From NCBI RefSeq assembly GCF_000069225.1, contig NC_010407.1, positions 1,116,001-1,180,000 of the forward strand: a DNA stretch of 64,000 bases. The letters are read 5' to 3'. Below are positions 30,406 to 42,013 of this stretch, piece by piece (within the stretch, counting starts at the first letter, position 1; every line of letters starts with the position of its first letter). The notes under the pieces are model-generated. The model had not been told where the DNA came from. It searched no databases and was given only the letters and a program-made list of their open reading frames with translations. This stretch comes from Clavibacter sepedonicus (lineage in GTDB: Bacteria > Actinomycetota > Actinomycetes > Actinomycetales > Microbacteriaceae). The position numbers and the translations under genes are program-made.

Positions 30406-32541
30406 ATGGCTCGCACCGGCCAGCGGCGGTCCTCCGCCCGCACGCGCACGATCGACAACGAGGGGCTCATCCCCGTGCTGGCCCGCGCCGTGCGCGAGAT
30501 CGAGCAGGCCGCCCAGCGCGGCAAGCTCAAGCCCGTCAACCGCACGAAGTTCCAGGTCATCGCCGTGCTGATGCGCGAGGAGCGCACGCACGCGAAGGAC
30601 CCGGCCACCCCGCTCAGCGACCCCGAGCGCGCCGAGACCCTGAAGCGCCTCGACGGCATCGCGAGCATCCTGGCCCGCACGGCCGCGCGGGACACCTCGG
30701 TGCTGCCGCTGCTGGATCCCGACGCCAAGCTCTCCGAGACCGCCCGCGCCATGCGCAAGCACATGCTCTTCGACGGCGGCGTGGAGATGGTCGTGGAGGA
30801 GGAGCCGGAGCCCGAGCCCGAGGATCCCGCCCTCGCCAAGCTCGTCGAGCGCCAGGTGGTGCCGCCGTCCGTCAAGGCCCGCGTGCTCGCGAACCCGTTC
30901 CTCGAGCCCGACCTCGACCGGCCCGCGCCCGCCGCGCCGCCCACCCGGAGGCTCGCGAACTGGGAGCTGCTCGGCCCGCTGTTCAAGTCGTTCGAGTACG
31001 GCGCCGGCGGCGGCATCGCGAGCATGGATCTGCCCGAGAGCCCCCGCATCGACCGCCTCTCGCCGCACGGCCTCGAGCTCATGCGCCACCAGGCGCGCTT
31101 CCTCGAGAGCGTGCGCCTCGGCCACCGCGAGTTCCTGCTCGCCGACGAGCCGGGCCTCGGCAAGACCGCGCAGGCGCTGCTCGCGGCGTCCGTCGCCGAC
31201 GCGTACCCGCTGCTCGTCGTCGTGCCGAACGTCGTGAAGATGAACTGGAAGCGCGAGGTCGAGCGGTGGACGCCGCACCGCCGCGCCACGGTGATCCACG
31301 GCGACGGCCTCGGCCTCGACGCCTTCGCCGACGTGGTCATCGTCAACTACGAGGTGCTCGACCGGCACATCGGCTGGCTGCGCACGCTCGGCTTCCGCGG
31401 CATGGTCGTCGACGAGGCGCACTTCATCAAGAACCTGCAGTCGCAGCGCTCCAAGTTCGTGCTCGCGCTCGCCGAGAGCATCCGCCAGCGCCAGTCGAAC
31501 CCGCTGCTCATGGCGCTGACGGGCACGCCGCTCATCAACGACATCGACGACTTCCGCGCCATCTGGCAGTTCCTCGGCTGGATCGACGGCGACAAGCCCA
31601 CGTCGCGCCTCATGGGGGAGCTGGAGGAGGCGGGCCTCACGCCGGCCGATCCCGGCTTCTTCGCCGAGGCGCGTCGCGCGGTCATCGACCTCGGCATCGT
31701 GCGCCGCCGCAAGATCGACGTGGCCACCGACCTGCCGTCCAAGCGCATCGCGGATCTCCCGGTCGAGCTCGACGACGACCTGGGCCGCTCCATCCGCCAG
31801 GCCGAGCGCGAGCTCGCCGCCCGCCTCGTCAAGCGCTTCACGGCGCTCGTCGGCGCGCGCGGCACCACCGTCGCCGACGTCATGGACGGACCGGCGTCCG
31901 AGCGCGCGAGCCTCGTGCGGCTCGTCGCGCAGTCCGAGCTCGACGAGGCCAAGGCGCAGAAGACCGGCGAGAACGTGTTCACCATGGTCCGCCGCATCGG
32001 TCAGGCCAAGGCCGTGCTCGCGGCCGACTACGCTGCGCAGCTCGCCCGCTCCGTGGGCAAGGTCGTGTTCTTCGCGAAGCACGTCGACGTGATGGACCAG
32101 GCCGAGGCCACGTTCGCGAAGCGCGAGCTGAAGAGCGTGTCCATCCGCGGCGACCAGTCGCCGGCCGCGCGCCAGAACGCGATCGACTCCTTCCAGAACG
32201 ACCCCGAGGTGAAGGTCGTGGTGTGCTCGCTCACCGCGGCGGGCGTCGGGCTCAACCTGCAGGCCGCGTCGAACGTCGTGCTTGCGGAGCTCAGCTGGAC
32301 GAGCGCCGAGGAGACGCAGGCCATCGACCGCGTGCACCGCATCGGCCAGGAGGAGCCCGTCACCGCGTGGCGGATCATCGCGGCGCAGACCATCGACGCG
32401 AAGCTCGCCGAGCTCATCGACGGCAAGGCGGGCCTCGCGGCGCGCGCGCTCGACGGCGAGGACTTCGACGAGGCCGGATCCACGTCCGTCCAGCTCGACG
32501 CCCTGTCGCACCTCCTCGAGGAGGCGCTGGCGGCGGGCTGA
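30406..32541 (+). CDS. SNF2-family DEAD/DEAH-box ATPase (helicase-like)
   Basis: A 711-residue SNF2-type ATPase. Motif I is ADEPGLGKTAQALL (near 246), motif II is VVDEAHFIKN (DEAH, near 335), motif III is LTGTPLIND, motif V is LTAAGVGLNLQAAS and motif VI is QAIDRVHRIGQEEP (near 640). An N-terminal extension of about 200 residues is helical and acidic. Such proteins move along double-stranded DNA to remodel bound proteins. RapA-like or repair roles are possible, and some SNF2 proteins work in phage defence, though no partner is visible here. A copy of its 3' end is repeated at 33584. Confidence 0.9.
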   Translation: MARTGQRRSSARTRTIDNEGLIPVLARAVREIEQAAQRGKLKPVNRTKFQVIAVLMREERTHAKDPATPLSDPERAETLKRLDGIASILARTAARDTSVLPLLDPDAKLSETARAMRKHMLFDGGVEMVVEEEPEPEPEDPALAKLVERQVVPPSVKARVLANPFLEPDLDRPAPAAPPTRRLANWELLGPLFKSFEYGAGGGIASMDLPESPRIDRLSPHGLELMRHQARFLESVRLGHREFLLADEPGLGKTAQALLAASVADAYPLLVVVPNVVKMNWKREVERWTPHRRATVIHGDGLGLDAFADVVIVNYEVLDRHIGWLRTLGFRGMVVDEAHFIKNLQSQRSKFVLALAESIRQRQSNPLLMALTGTPLINDIDDFRAIWQFLGWIDGDKPTSRLMGELEEAGLTPADPGFFAEARRAVIDLGIVRRRKIDVATDLPSKRIADLPVELDDDLGRSIRQAERELAARLVKRFTALVGARGTTVADVMDGPASERASLVRLVAQSELDEAKAQKTGENVFTMVRRIGQAKAVLAADYAAQLARSVGKVVFFAKHVDVMDQAEATFAKRELKSVSIRGDQSPAARQNAIDSFQNDPEVKVVVCSLTAAGVGLNLQAASNVVLAELSWTSAEETQAIDRVHRIGQEEPVTAWRIIAAQTIDAKLAELIDGKAGLAARALDGEDFDEAGSTSVQLDALSHLLEEALAAG

Positions 32542-32560
32542 CCTCAGACCGGCTCTACAC

Positions 32561-32605
32561 GACGATGCCCGGGCTATCTCAACTCGAGGTAGCCCGGGCA
32601 TCGTC
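32561..32605. terminator. Bidirectional hairpin terminator between the SNF2 gene and module A
   Basis: GACGATGCCCGGGCTA pairs with TAGCCCGGGCATCGTC across a 13-base loop, giving a 16-bp perfect stem. It lies 20 bases after the SNF2 stop and just before the convergent small membrane gene ends, so it can serve both transcripts. Confidence 0.8.
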
Positions 32606-32619
32606 GCATGGAACTCCTA

Positions 32620-32850
32620 TTAGTCGCGTCGACGATGAAGTCGTCCCGACAATTTTACGGAGACAAGATATGTCGCGCCGAAGAGCATTATCGCTCCTAT
32701 GGTCGCAGGGATCGCGTGCGAGGAAATCGTCGTCCCTCCCACAAGAGGCACGACAACCAGCTGCGAGAAGAGAAAAAAGGCGACCACGATGCTCGATGAC
32801 GTGAAGGCGCGGGTGCGCCGTGAACTTTGACGGTTTTCTGATTCAGTAAT
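32620..32850 (-). CDS. Small two-helix membrane protein, module A partner, probable ATT start
   Basis: A 76-residue protein if read from the ATT at 32850: after a basic stretch (SSRRTRAF) come two hydrophobic helices (VVAFFLFSQLVVVPLV and IGAIMLFGATYLVSV) and a basic end (HRRRD). It aligns with the ATG-started protein at 35265 (RRTRA, AFxLF, LVVxPL, YLV). In that copy the ATG overlaps the stop of the secreted gene; in this copy the same position is ATT, a rare but real start codon. An ATG at 32916 would overlap the secreted gene by 74 bases and has no match in the paralogue. A two-helix protein coupled to a secreted peptide looks like an immunity or export factor, as inference only. Confidence 0.6.
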   Translation of the reverse strand: MTESENRQSSRRTRAFTSSSIVVAFFLFSQLVVVPLVGGTTISSHAIPATIGAIMLFGATYLVSVKLSGRLHRRRD

Positions 32851-33469
32851 GGCGACACTGTGCGGCAAGCGTAGCGAGGTAGATGCGGAGATTTTGCCCA
32901 CCCGGGCAGATGCCATGAGCAGTCAGAATACCGATGACCGTCGCGCCAAGTCCGGCGCCGATGCCGCACCCTACTCCTGCGGTTTCCGGCCCGACCGCCG
33001 CGCACACGGCAAGCGCAATGGTCCGCGCCGCGCCCACGGCCCCGGCGGCCTGTTCGCTGGAGTCGAGGCTGATGTAGGGGAACGGGTCAGCGCCGACTCC
33101 CACCAACGATTCGCCTGGGCCACCTTCCGAGCCTGGGTCGACTAAGGCGTCTCCATTGGGTGTATAGGTGAAGGAGATAAGCGCGTGGCCGGAGAGGTGG
33201 TAGGTCACACGCTGTCCGTACGGCGTAGTAGCGGTGGTGCGGTCTGCTGGGCCGCGCGTAAGATCGCTCGCGAGCTCACGACGCTCAGCCGAGTCGCGGA
33301 GAATGGACGCGTGAGTGGTTTGCGCTGAATTCGAGTGGCTCATGCTCGCCTGCACTTTAGAGGGAGTGCGGCTGGCTGACGGTTCCGCGTAAACGGATGG
33401 TGTTACTGCAAAGGACGACATGGCTAGCACCGCGACTGCGGCCACCTGTGTCAGTAATTGTTTTTTCAT
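32843..33469 (-). CDS. Secreted four-cysteine glycine-rich protein, module A (unrecognised family)
   Basis: A 208-residue protein. TAAGAGGAAAA precedes the ATG at 33469. The N-terminus MKKQLLTQVAAVAVLAMSS and following residues to SVYA form a clear Sec signal peptide. A polar propeptide-like region of about 110 residues follows, then a hydrophobic Gly/Ala-rich C-terminal core with four cysteines: AVCAAVGPETAGVGC, then GILTAHGICPGGQN, and QCRHY at the end. The core is shared with module B at 35479, where GPETxGVGC, AHGxCP and QNxRIY are conserved. A secreted precursor with a disulphide-capable hydrophobic core plus a tiny coupled membrane protein resembles a bacteriocin-immunity pair, but no known family is recognised. 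Confidence 0.72.
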   Translation of the reverse strand: MKKQLLTQVAAVAVLAMSSFAVTPSVYAEPSASRTPSKVQASMSHSNSAQTTHASILRDSAERRELASDLTRGPADRTTATTPYGQRVTYHLSGHALISFTYTPNGDALVDPGSEGGPGESLVGVGADPFPYISLDSSEQAAGAVGAARTIALAVCAAVGPETAGVGCGIGAGLGATVIGILTAHGICPGGQNLRIYLATLAAQCRHY

Positions 33470-33477
33470 TTTTCCTC

Positions 33478-33580
33478 TTAGCTGGTTGTGGTGAAGGTCA
33501 CCATCCTCCATGAGTGGCTGTCGAGCACGACTTGTCCGCAGGGTCCGCCAGCGGTAGGAGAGGAAGTGCTAGGTCGGTCA
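33478..33580 (-). pseudogene. Truncated 3' end of an unknown gene upstream of module A
   Basis: On the minus strand an open frame ending CGQVVLDSHSWRMVTFTTTS stops at TAA 33480-33478, nine bases before the module A secreted gene, whose ribosome site overlaps that stop region. Going upstream, the frame soon runs into the duplicated SNF2 fragment on the other strand. This looks like the last 30 or so codons of a gene that was once upstream in the same operon and was cut off at the duplication joint. Confidence 0.45.
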
Positions 33581-33583
33581 GTG

Positions 33584-33721
33584 ATCGCCGAGCTCATCGA
33601 CAGCAAGGCGGGCCTCGCGGCGCGCGCGCTCGACGGCGAGGACTTTGACGAGTCCGGATCCACCTCCGTCCAGCTCGACGCGCTCTCGCACCTCCTCGAG
33701 GAGGCGCTGGCGGCGGGCTGA
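33584..33721 (+). pseudogene. Duplicated 3' end of the SNF2 ATPase gene
   Basis: About 138 bases nearly identical to the end of the SNF2 gene (32404-32541). They encode AELIDSKAGLAARALDGEDF and run on to EEALAAG with the same stop codon and only a few substitutions. The similarity begins abruptly near 33584. No promoter or start is associated. It shows that a block containing the SNF2 tail and the adjoining module has been duplicated, giving the series SNF2-module A-SNF2 tail-module B. Confidence 0.85.
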
Positions 33722-33761
33722 CCCGCTCGACGCACGACATGACGACGCCCCCGCGACCTGC

Positions 33762-35220
33762 GGCGGATTCTCGTGGTCCCCGCAACACCCTGAGTTCAGG
33801 GGGTTGCGGGGATCGTGGTTTCGGGTGAGTTGCGGCGGGAGTTCTTCGAGGTACTGGACCGGGTCGATGGCAGCATCACGGCTGCTGCGGCTGTGGTCGG
33901 GGTGAGTCGGAACACCGCGTACGGGTGGGCGCGCACGGCTGGTGTGCGTGGGCGCGGGAAGTCCGGTACAGCGGGGCATCCAGGGCGTGGCGAGTACGAG
34001 CGGCTCCGCGTGGAGGGGATGTCCCGGCGGGTAGCCGCGTCGCGGGTCGGTGTGCATGAGCGCACTGCGCAGGACTGGGACCGCGGCTGGATGAAGCGGG
34101 GCAGTGTTCGGATTCATGCTGATGGTCGGCGGATCGAGTACAACACCGGGATGGCTACCATCACGGGACCGCGTCTGCCCGCTGTCGACGCTGTTCTGCA
34201 TCCGCGGTTCCTGACCGTGATCGAGCGGGAGACGATCGCGGATCTGCGCCGTCAGGACCTGTCGCTGCGCGCGATCGGGCGGGTTCTGGGTCGGCCGGCA
34301 TCGACGATCAAACGCGAGCTCGATGCCCGCACGGTCGCGGGGACCTACCAGCCCCACGCGGCGCACCGGGCCTGGGCAGCGAGCCGCTCTCGTCCGAAGC
34401 GGGCGAAGCTCGCTCAGGACGGGCCGCTGCGGGACTACGTCGCACGCAAGCTGATGCTGCGCTGGTCACCGGAGCAGATCTCCCGCCTGCTGGTTCGGGA
34501 GTTCCCGGGCGAGGAGAGTATGCGGGTGAGCACGGAGACGATCTACCAAGCGATCTACGTCCAGGCCCGCGGCGGACTGCGCCGCGAAGTCGCCGACGCG
34601 TTACGCACCGGCCGCACCCGCCGCAGACCCCGCACCCGCCCAGAGCATCGCACTCAACGGTTCGTGGACCCGATGGTCATGATCGCTGACCGGCCCGCGG
34701 AGATCGAGGACCGGGCAGTCCCTGGGCATTGGGAGGGTGATCTGATCGTCGGCACGAGCTCACAGTCCGCGATCGTGACTCTGGTCGAACGCACCACCCG
34801 CTACGTCATGCTCGGCCATCTCCCCGGCGGGCATACCGCCGAGGAAGTCCGTGACGTGCTCGTGCCCTTGATCAGCACCCTGCCTGCACACCTACGTGGA
34901 TCGTTGACCTGGGACCAGGGCGCTGAGATGGCGAGCCACCGCCAGATCAGCATCCAGGCCGGAATCCCGGTCTATTTCTGCGATCCGCACTCACCCTGGC
35001 AACGCGGCAGCAACGAGAACACCAACGGACTCCTGCGCCAGTACTTCCCTAAGGGCACCGATCTCGCCGCCCATACCTCCGCCGACCTCGAACATGTCGC
35101 TCAGCAGCTCAACGGCCGACCACGCAAAACGCTCGACTGGGACACCCCAGCCGAGCGAATGCGTGCTCTACTGACAACCATCTAAATCATCAGGTGTTGC
35201 GACGACCACGAGAATCCGCC
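33762..35220 (+). mobile_element. IS30-family insertion sequence, complete, inserted in a terminator loop
   Basis: An element of 1,459 bases. The left end GGCGGATTCTCGTGGTC and the complement of the right end GGCGGATTCTCGTGGTC match over 17 bases and continue with related CGCAACACC/TGA stretches. TGC directly flanks both sides (33759-33761 and 35221-35223), a three-base target duplication of the usual IS30 type. An internal hairpin at 33778-33811 (CCCCGCAAC pairing with GTTGCGGGG) sits just before the transposase start and may block read-through transcription from outside. The flanking arms form a broken terminator, described separately. Confidence 0.88.
33815..35185 (+). CDS. IS30-family DDE transposase
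   Basis: A 456-residue transposase starting at GTG 33815. The N-terminal part has a helix-turn-helix (AAAAVVGVSRNTAYGWART) and a second HTH typical of IS30 (LRAIGRVLGRPASTIKREL). The catalytic core has GHWEGDLIVG (Asp near 308), LTWDQGAEM (Asp near 366) and RGSNENTNGLLRQYFPKGT (Glu near 400), the classic IS30 DDE set. The frame is intact with no internal stop. It is the only gene in the element. Confidence 0.93.
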   Translation: MVSGELRREFFEVLDRVDGSITAAAAVVGVSRNTAYGWARTAGVRGRGKSGTAGHPGRGEYERLRVEGMSRRVAASRVGVHERTAQDWDRGWMKRGSVRIHADGRRIEYNTGMATITGPRLPAVDAVLHPRFLTVIERETIADLRRQDLSLRAIGRVLGRPASTIKRELDARTVAGTYQPHAAHRAWAASRSRPKRAKLAQDGPLRDYVARKLMLRWSPEQISRLLVREFPGEESMRVSTETIYQAIYVQARGGLRREVADALRTGRTRRRPRTRPEHRTQRFVDPMVMIADRPAEIEDRAVPGHWEGDLIVGTSSQSAIVTLVERTTRYVMLGHLPGGHTAEEVRDVLVPLISTLPAHLRGSLTWDQGAEMASHRQISIQAGIPVYFCDPHSPWQRGSNENTNGLLRQYFPKGTDLAAHTSADLEHVAQQLNGRPRKTLDWDTPAERMRALLTTI

Positions 35221-35264
35221 TGCTGGTCGCGGGGGCGTCGTGCGTGCTCGGTTTCGGCTTACTG

Positions 35265-35486
35265 CTACCTTCCTCGGCCGAGGAGACGAGGGATCTTCAG
35301 GAGCACTAGGTAGCTGAATGCGAAGAGGGGCACACCGAACACGCCCGCTGGAAACGTGCGAGTCATCGCATTCTCGCCCGCGGCTAGGGGAGCCACTACG
35401 AGCGTGGCGAAGAGGTAAAAAGCGGTGATGACAGCGGTGAGCACGACAGCGCGCGTCCTGCGATTACGAATCGTCGGTTCAGTCAT
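35265..35486 (-). CDS. Small two-helix membrane protein, module B partner
   Basis: A 73-residue protein starting MTEPTIRNRRTRAVVLTA. It has two hydrophobic helices (VITAFYLFATLVVAPLA and VPLFAFSYLVLLKI) and a basic tail (LLGRGR). The ATG lies inside the last codons of the secreted gene (ATGACTGA), so the two are translationally coupled. It is homologous to the module A protein at 32620. Both copies retain the overlapping gene order, which suggests that coupled dosage matters. A role as an immunity or export factor for the secreted peptide is inferred from context. Confidence 0.68.
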   Translation of the reverse strand: MTEPTIRNRRTRAVVLTAVITAFYLFATLVVAPLAAGENAMTRTFPAGVFGVPLFAFSYLVLLKIPRLLGRGR

Positions 35487-35790
35487 TTCGGCACTGCCCT
35501 TCCAAGCTGAGGATGTAGATGCGGTAGTTCTGATTGTTGGGGCAGACCCCATGGGCCGCGACGATGGCCACGATCGTAACGCCGAGGCCCCCAGCGGCGA
35601 TGCATCCGACACCACCAGTCTCGGGTCCGAGTGCAGCACAGATCGTGGCGGCGAGACCCCCGGCCGCGGCGGTGGCACCGGTGGCTTAGGCAGCGGAGGG
35701 AGCGGAGGCGAAGGCGGGTGCAGCAGCGGCGAGCGGCACCAGCGTGAGCGCTACCAGGAGCGAGAGTCGTTTGAGCGATAGCGATCTCAT
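35479..35790 (-). pseudogene. Secreted four-cysteine glycine-rich protein, module B, with in-frame TAA
   Basis: AGAAGGAAGCG precedes the ATG at 35790. The frame encodes a signal peptide (MRSLSLKRLSLLVALTLVPL continuing to AFASAPSAA), then meets TAA at 35688-35686. It continues in the same frame as ATGATAAAGGLAATICAALG, then GGVGC, AHGVCPNNQNYRIYI and QCRND. The C-terminal core matches module A, including all four cysteines, but the roughly 110-residue region between signal peptide and core is absent. The stop prevents production unless bypassed or a sequencing error. Its downstream partner gene is intact. Confidence 0.7.
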
Positions 35791-41099: not shown

Positions 41100-41923
41100 G
41101 ACAGGCGCTCACTTTGGGCGACGAGCTCGGGCGTGACGGCGTCGAGCGCGTCGAGCAGCCCGACCGCGAAGGATCCCGGCCCGCGCGCCCCCTCGGCGGC
41201 GATGTCGGCCGCGATCGTGTAGCCGCTGGTCGCGGCGACGGCGGCCCGCAGCGGATCCGGATCCGTCGACGCGAACGCCGTCATCACGGCCCCAAGCGCG
41301 CAGCCGCCGCCCGTCACCTTCGTGAGCCACGCGTCACCCGTGTGCACGCGCACGAGCCGGTGGCCGTCCGTGATGTGGTCGACCGCGCCGGAGACCGCGA
41401 CGACCGTGCCGTAGGTGCGCGCCAGCAGGCTCGCGGCGTCGAGCGCGGCCTCGACCTCGTCGGTGGCGTCGACCCCGCGGCCGCCCGCGCCGCCCGTCGC
41501 GAGCGCGATGATCTCCGACGCGTTGCCGCGCACGATGGTCGGCGACAGCGCCACGAGCTCGTGCGCGAGCCGCGTGCGCACCGGCAGGGCGCCGACCGCG
41601 ACGGGATCCAGCACCCACGGCGTCCCCGCGTCGCGCGCCGCGTGCGCGGCCTCGACCGCGGCCTCCCGCTGCTCGGCGTGCGGCGTGCCGAGGTTGATGA
41701 GCACGCCTGACGCGATGCGCGCGAACGGCCCGGACTCGGTCGGCACGTCCGTCATCGCGGGCGCGGCACCCAGCGCGAGCAGGACGTTCGCGGTGAAGCC
41801 GGTGACGACCGCGTTGGTGATGCACTGCACGAGCGGCTGGCGCTCCCGCAGCTGGAGGAGGAGATCCGCCGAGGTCGGCGTCCCCCGCGTGATCGTTCCC
41901 GTGGATGGGCGCAGAGCGCTCAT
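41096..41923 (-). CDS. thiM: Hydroxyethylthiazole kinase ThiM
   Basis: A 275-residue kinase that phosphorylates 4-methyl-5-hydroxyethylthiazole for thiamine salvage. Signatures include [63 protein letters not shown] and [16 protein letters not shown] (phosphate-binding glycines and catalytic Cys). The length is typical for the family. It is the first gene after the TPP riboswitch and overlaps ThiE-ThiD-TenA by four bases. Together they supply the salvage half of the pathway. Confidence 0.95.
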
Positions 41924-41927
41924 GATG

Positions 41928-42013
41928 ACATCCCTCCGCCGGTGCGAACCGGATCAGGTGCGACGGGTCTCATCTCAGCCCTCGTGGGCACCCCGTGTCA
42001 GGGACCCACCCTA
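41928..42013 (-). promoter_or_regulatory. TPP riboswitch (THI box)
   Basis: Read on the minus strand, GGGGTGCC, then GAGGGCTGAGA, then ACCCGTCGCACCTGATCCGG and GGCGGAGGGA appear in the order and spacing of the THI-box aptamer. The TPP-sensing CTGAGA and ACCTGATC loops are intact. The aptamer ends a few bases before the ThiM start, and its GGAGGGA can itself act as the ribosome site, so TPP binding probably blocks translation initiation. Confidence 0.95.

What the first reader, a model, noticed from the sequence alone, without database searches (positions are those of the whole stretch)
32620..35790. Duplicated module: secreted four-cysteine glycine-rich peptide overlapping a tiny two-helix membrane protein
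Seen: two copies, at 32620-33469 and 35265-35790, encode a signal-peptide protein ending in a hydrophobic core with conserved GPETxGVGC, AHGxCP, QNxRIY and QCR. Each is followed by a two-helix membrane protein whose start lies inside the last codons of the secreted gene. Known: secreted hydrophobic peptides coupled to small membrane proteins are typical of bacteriocin-immunity pairs. Inference: this may be an undescribed bacteriocin or contact-toxin family of Microbacteriaceae. Copy A has a propeptide-like region of about 110 residues that copy B lacks.
Basis: partly seen in the sequence, partly recalled or inferred. Interest (0 to 1): 0.78.

Follow-up and report, generated by a model that had tools for sequence, protein, structure and literature searches.

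The report
Actinobacterial bacteriocin–immunity gene pair
Two neighbouring gene pairs, one of them broken, look like a secreted bacterial weapon protein and the small membrane protein that protects its maker, and the same kind of pair turns up on chromosomes and plasmids of related bacteria, including species from skin and permafrost.

Summary
The two copies are real and homologous (46% identical in the core), but copy B is a pseudogene: it has an in-frame stop and lacks about 100 codons that an orthologue in a genome of the same genus keeps. Its missing "propeptide" is therefore decay. No member scanned meets a Pfam, NCBIfam or PHROGs family convincingly. Relatives reach plasmids of Arthrobacter, Corynebacterium and Rhodococcus. 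Four cysteines are invariant in 15 of 15 aligned members. Of 30 family genes, 22 are followed at once by a 45–100 aa two-helix membrane protein; of 158 control ORFs 6 are, all 6 being this family's own partners. At one locus in 18 genomes of the genus, 3 carry the pair, 11 only the membrane gene, 1 a degenerate one, 3 neither; the secreted gene never occurs there alone. Orphan membrane genes (11 tested) have dN/dS below 1 in all 55 comparisons. That asymmetry is what an immunity gene should show. Best reading: a Sec-secreted, disulphide-bonded, membrane-inserting bacteriocin with a two-helix immunity protein. It is laid out like RapA/RapB and resembles dysgalacticin/DysI, but shows no sequence relation to the first and could not be compared with the second. 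Killing is inferred, not shown.

The parts
32843..33469 (-). copy A: secreted four-cysteine protein, 208 aa (signal-like residues 1-29, linker 30-66, N domain 67-122, core 123-208; limits chosen by eye)
   Evidence: ORF and translation; family profile hits; limits from alignment A6 and predicted secondary structure
32620..32850 (-). partner A: two-helix membrane protein, candidate immunity protein; start codon uncertain (ATT where relatives start; in-frame TTG/GTG/ATG further upstream)
35479..35790 (-). copy B: decayed copy of the secreted gene (in-frame TAA at 35686-35688, about 100 codons missing relative to an orthologue)
35265..35486 (-). partner B: intact two-helix membrane protein, 73 aa, start overlaps the end of copy B
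32405..32543 (+). 3' end of the helicase gene (30406-32541; SNF2 type by reading, not scanned), reference copy of a 139-nt direct repeat that bounds module A
33585..33723 (+). second copy of the helicase tail (96% identical), on the far side of module A
32560..32606 (.). terminator-like hairpin (21-nt arms, 95% complementary) between the helicase and module A
   Evidence: inverted repeat I4
33815..35185 (+). transposase ORF (456 aa; IS30 type by reading) separating module A from module B; inverted ends at 33762-33789 and 35193-35220

Best explanation
Each module is a two-gene bacteriocin system. The first gene makes a Sec-exported protein of about 180 residues after signal removal (inferred): a variable N-terminal alpha/beta domain (receptor binding, solubility or pro-domain; inferred) followed by a conserved, glycine-rich, hydrophobic helical hairpin and a beta hairpin held by four cysteines, probably two disulphides (inferred). 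It would act outside the cell on close relatives by inserting the hairpin into the target membrane (inferred). The second gene, often overlapping the first, makes a two-helix membrane protein that protects the producer (inferred from genetics). Modules spread as pairs, also on plasmids; once the weapon is lost the immunity gene may be kept alone. In the window, module A looks intact and module B has a dead weapon gene with an intact partner.
For: Shown: 4 invariant Cys, one Gly and one Gln in 15 of 15 sequences, the others being 17-52% identical to copy A; core (36% mean pairwise identity) more conserved than N domain (21%) or linker (17%); helices 137-158 and 161-185 and strands 193-197 and 202-206 predicted, block pLDDT 67-88 there. 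Shown: 22 of 30 family genes, against 6 of 158 control ORFs, followed by a two-helix small ORF; the 6 are all this family's own partners, which leaves 0 of 152. Shown: similarities of the two genes correlate, Spearman 0.36, 1 of 2000 permutations as high, 24 pairs, not corrected for relatedness. Shown: plasmid-borne pairs in Arthrobacter, Corynebacterium (one plasmid of 9.7 kb) and Rhodococcus. Shown: at the helicase locus 3 of 18 genomes have the pair, 11 only the partner, 1 a degenerate partner, 3 neither; 11 orphan partner genes have dN/dS 0.17-0.72, median 0.44, in 55 comparisons, without a significance test; all 11 have their best score against the partner of A or of L007, above those of B and L079. 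Precedents in print: RapA/RapB, RapB being an immunity protein that may be in the membrane (PMC7502451, passages); dysgalacticin/DysI (PMC8308785, passages).
Against: No activity data. Signal peptide and topology rest on hydropathy. Two family loci (L014, frameshifted; L023) have no partner, three (L019, L024, L085) have a 3-4-helix protein instead, and L025 counts as two-helix only from some start codons. With a looser helix threshold the count is 24 of 30 against 8 of 158, two of the 8 being unrelated. Ten more distant relatives, with 3-4 cysteines in the last 100 residues, have no two-helix partner, 0 of 10. The model is low-confidence overall (mean pLDDT 63.8, pTM 0.45) with no significant fold match. 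L081 has lost the last cysteine, and P0025 lacks C168.
Confidence: 0.72

Rival explanations
1. The secreted protein is not a killer but a surface or envelope protein, and the two-helix protein is its membrane anchor, chaperone or secretion helper.
For: Overlapping genes and co-inheritance fit any obligate pair; ten distant relatives and L023 do without a two-helix partner.
Against: A helper has no use without its client, yet 11 of 18 genomes keep only the two-helix gene at the locus, with dN/dS below 1 in the 11 orphan genes compared; patchy, partly plasmid-borne distribution is unusual for an envelope housekeeping function.
Confidence: 0.13
2. The two-helix gene is an independent membrane gene with its own old function, and the secreted gene was inserted upstream by recombination.
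For: In the genus the two-helix gene at the helicase locus is commoner than the pair.
Against: Pairing recurs at unrelated loci, in other families and on plasmids, with strongly diverged partners; in G1132 the locus holds a pair and an orphan side by side.
Confidence: 0.08
3. A plant-directed virulence factor of the window's organism.
Against: Homologous pairs in Mycetocola saprophilus, a permafrost Arthrobacter, Rhodococcus and Corynebacterium, one from human skin.
Confidence: 0.04
4. Chance similarity of low-complexity glycine/alanine-rich sequence.
For: The core is rich in glycine and alanine.
Against: Profile E-values down to 1e-47 for other proteins in the database search and 4e-63 within genomes, invariant Cys/Gln, recurring partner, an orthologue 66 of 68 identical in the core.
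Confidence: 0.01

Closest known systems
RapA/RapB of Rhodococcus erythropolis JCM 2895 (5.4-kb plasmid)
   Same: Two genes on a small actinobacterial plasmid: a small secreted bacteriocin-like protein and an immunity protein that may sit in the membrane (PMC7502451, passages; PMC9753674, whole text). On pREC01 I read a 93-aa ORF with a signal-like start and four cysteines (705-986), 33 nt ahead of a 65-aa two-helix ORF (1020-1217). That pREC01 is the plasmid meant and that these are rapA and rapB is my inference; the original paper was not held.
   Different: No detectable sequence relation: the 37-sequence family profile run with filters off over all stop-to-stop ORFs of 30 or more residues of pREC01 gives a best E of 0.39. 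The RapA candidate has no N domain of about 100 residues.
Dysgalacticin/DysI and streptococcin A-M57 (class III streptococcal bacteriocins)
   Same: Dysgalacticin: Sec-exported, 21.5 kDa, 28-residue leader, plasmid-borne, adjacent gene for a membrane-associated immunity protein; disturbs membrane potential (PMC8308785, passages). A disulphide needed for activity is recalled, not read.
Lactococcin 972 family
   Same: Sec-secreted bacteriocin of Gram-positive bacteria (recalled); one is annotated about 6 kb from the family gene on the Arthrobacter alpinus plasmid.
   Different: No match of copy A to Pfam or NCBIfam, and no such family among those listed for 13 and 22 members.
Michiganin A (Clavibacter lantibiotic; recalled, paper listing only)
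   Same: A bacteriocin of the genus to which the window's organism appears to belong.
   Different: A lanthipeptide needs modification enzymes; none was noticed by reading the ORFs beside the window's modules or the Mycetocola pair (no profile scan of neighbours).

Membership tests
RapA/RapB | detectable sequence similarity to RapA | tested here: not met
   family profile against all pREC01 ORFs of 30+ residues, filters off: best E 0.39; which ORF is RapA is inferred
RapA/RapB | two-gene arrangement: small secreted Cys protein followed by two-helix membrane protein | tested here: met
   for pREC01, for the family; identity of rapA/rapB inferred
RapA/RapB | antibacterial activity against close kin and immunity by the second gene | not testable with these tools
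   needs bench work
Dysgalacticin-type class III bacteriocins | sequence or fold similarity to DysA | not tested
   record AY907345 not held
Dysgalacticin-type class III bacteriocins | Sec-type leader and precursor of about 20 kDa | tested here: inconclusive
   copy A 208 aa with a hydrophobic N-terminal stretch; most relatives 176-213 aa; no signal-peptide predictor available
Lactococcin 972 family | match to the family models in Pfam/NCBIfam | tested here: not met
   0 families for copy A; not among the families listed for 13 and 22 members
Lanthipeptides | modification enzymes next to the precursor | tested here: inconclusive
   neighbouring ORFs read by eye as helicase, transposase, small membrane protein, transporter; not scanned with profiles
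Known or candidate anti-phage defence proteins | significant PADLOC match | tested here: inconclusive
   none for copy A; 3 of 22 members match PDC-M09A at E <= 0.1, best 0.0069

The most novel reading that the evidence does not exclude
An unnamed family of Sec-secreted, two-disulphide, membrane-inserting bacteriocins with two-helix immunity proteins, spread across Actinomycetota, accounts for at least some of the kin-directed bacteriocins of Clavibacter known since the 1970s and for an overlooked weapon of skin corynebacteria; and the genus keeps orphan immunity genes at a helicase-end hotspot into which whole pairs, carrying a copy of the helicase tail, are swapped.
Probability: 0.5. Interest if true: 0.75.

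Novelty: new variant of a known kind. Interest (0 to 1): 0.62.

Why it matters
Bacteriocins of Clavibacter (CN1, CN2 and others) have been typed by growth inhibition, with papers from 1979 and 1981 cited; the passages I saw name no gene for them (PMC11748494, PMC12628682). This family gives sequence-level candidates, and the presence and orphan-immunity patterns predict who should resist whom. It is also on a small plasmid of a human-skin Corynebacterium, with a related Corynebacterium cluster of 90 member sequences. In the plasmid records the secreted gene is called hypothetical protein, and in 4 of 6 records the partner has no listed gene (the PLSDB gene table is incomplete).
Full report
What is there. 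On the minus strand, 32843-33469 encodes a 208-aa protein with a hydrophobic N terminus and a cysteine-bearing, glycine-rich C terminus; 32620-32850 follows with a two-helix protein. At 35265-35790 the same arrangement recurs. A protein search of the own genome finds copy A, copy B (with one TAA inside) and a third paralogue at G000:C2:162276. The own genome is 3,403,786 bases in three contigs, the window's contig 3,258,645. From memory these are the sizes of Clavibacter sepedonicus ATCC 33113; no call names the organism, so 'Clavibacter' for the own genus is an inference throughout.

Copy B is broken. Its N-terminal piece matches residues 1-31 and its C-terminal piece residues 135-202 of a 202-aa orthologue in G1138 (24 of 31 and 66 of 68 identical). 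Copy B has 34 and 68 codons around a stop, so about 100 codons are gone. Most chromosomal pseudogenes of C. sepedonicus ATCC 33113 are put down to nonsense mutation, frameshift and partial deletion, with 106 IS elements and 3.4% pseudogenes (PMC9190974, passages). The partner of copy B is intact.

The family. Iterated protein searches raised the hits from 3 to 5 to 21; of the 7 with an organism name, 5 are Corynebacterium. Alignment A6 (15 sequences, the others 17-52% identical to copy A) has six invariant positions: G126, Q140, C156, C168, C188 and C205. In A7 (22 sequences) C156 and C205 are invariant, C168 and C188 at least 90%. The core is more conserved (36% mean pairwise identity) than the N domain (21%), the linker (17%) and the signal region (26%). 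Copy A matches no Pfam or NCBIfam model at E <= 1, and the weak matches of single members are listed under Tried and rejected. Ten distant relatives in the genus, with 3-4 cysteines in the last 100 residues, extend the superfamily.

Where it occurs. Microbacteriaceae: 11 of 398 genomes; class: 4 of 394; phylum: 2 of 396, the own genome and one doubtful. All counts include the own genome and are lower bounds, since only a few candidates per genome were scored. In the own genus, with all candidates scored, 12 of 18 genomes have a match, 7 of 8 and 5 of 10; in three of the twelve (G1136, G1139, G356) only distant relatives are found. Plasmids: Arthrobacter alpinus, Corynebacterium maris and C. 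bovis, a 9.7-kb plasmid of C. tuberculostearicum from human skin, and two Rhodococcus plasmids. No match in phages or viral contigs, each searched with one protein.

The partner. Under one rule (45-100 aa, exactly two hydrophobic segments, start within -60 to +120 nt) 22 of 30 family genes have it. Of 158 non-overlapping control ORFs of at least 150 aa, from the window and the other loci I listed for the control, 6 do, and all six are partners of this very family: partner B seen from another frame and five orphans. At a looser helix threshold it is 24 of 30 against 8 of 158, two of the eight being unrelated. The eight misses under the strict rule: L012, L013 and L034 have a small ORF with a weaker helix; L019, L024 and L085 a 3-4-helix protein; L014 (frameshifted) and L023 nothing. 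In nine loci (copy B, L005, L020, L007, L008, L015, L028, L078, L079) the partner's start lies 7 nt before the last base of the secreted gene. Similarity matrices of the two genes correlate (Spearman 0.356; 1 of 2000 permutations as high; 24 pairs); this is not corrected for relatedness.

The locus test. The helicase 3' end was found in 18 of 18 genus genomes. Behind it, in the stretches read (0.8 kb for G1133, about 4 kb for the others): pair present in 3 (G000 with A and broken B; G1132; G1138); partner gene alone in 11 (G381, G1135, G1136, G109, G259, G1133, G1137, G217, G1139, G166, G1134); degenerate partner in G034; neither in G297, G329 and G356. In G1132 the pair is followed by a helicase-tail copy and then an orphan partner. 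A second copy of the helicase tail (137-198 nt, 96% identical) was found in the three genomes with a pair and in none of the other fifteen, which suggests that pairs enter by recombination together with the tail (inferred). Eleven orphan partner genes (ten of the eleven above, G1133 being left out, plus the orphan of G1132) give dN/dS 0.17-0.72, median 0.44, over 55 pairs, without a significance test. All eleven have their best score against the partner of A or L007, above those of B and L079. Keeping the membrane gene without the secreted gene, never the reverse at this locus, is the asymmetry expected of immunity. [quoted passage not shown]

How it most likely works. Shown: sequence family, overlap, co-inheritance, orphan partners. 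Inferred: Sec export, two disulphides, hairpin insertion into target membranes, protection by the two-helix protein. The second model (22 sequences; mean pLDDT 63.8, pTM 0.45) puts helices at 137-158 and 161-185 and a beta hairpin at 193-206, with block pLDDT 67-88 there, and strands between 76-102 and 123-135 before them. No significant fold match.

Known comparisons. RapA/RapB: a 5.4-kb plasmid carries rapA and rapB; RapA acts on other R. erythropolis strains and RapB is an immunity protein that may be in the membrane (PMC7502451, passages; PMC9753674, whole text). On pREC01 the candidate genes have the same layout but no profile match. Dysgalacticin/DysI: Sec leader, 21.5 kDa, membrane-associated immunity protein. 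Neither membership is claimed. Clavibacter bacteriocins are known as phenotypes (PMC11748494, PMC12628682, passages). In the listings I saw no paper that names this family; most of the listed papers were not opened, and the library holds open-licence papers only.

Noticed in passing
L004:5851-7254 (own genome, C2:161850-163253): Third paralogue in the own genome is followed not by a two-helix gene but by a four-helix protein and an ORF read as a helix-turn-helix regulator; L081 in G1134 shows a two-helix ORF and then a similar multi-helix protein, so the unit can be longer.
   Followed up: partly
window 32405-32543 and 33585-33723; L062, L076: Tail of the helicase gene is duplicated beyond the module in three of 18 genomes of the genus, the same three that carry a pair there: a possible route of cassette entry by recombination.
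   Followed up: partly
L083, L084, L087, L088, L090, L091, L092, L096, L099, L101: A more distant group of secreted-looking proteins with a similar C-terminal hydrophobic region and 3-4 cysteines in the last 100 residues but no two-helix partner (0 of 10); L101 has a three-helix protein.
   Followed up: partly
window 33742-33789 and 35193-35241: The IS30-like element's 28-nt inverted ends are directly flanked by 20-nt inverted arms, as if it had entered a palindrome.
   Followed up: no
L005:1471-4506 (Arthrobacter alpinus plasmid): A lactococcin 972 family bacteriocin with a following large hypothetical protein and ABC ATPase is annotated about 6 kb from the family gene, so the plasmid may carry two different bacteriocin systems.
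   Followed up: no
window 41914-42005 (-): TPP riboswitch (Rfam RF00059, 66.2 bits), ordinary.
   Followed up: no
L010: Core with an intact overlapping two-helix partner, but no start codon or signal-like stretch seen in the core's own frame: perhaps another decayed weapon gene beside an intact partner.
   Followed up: partly
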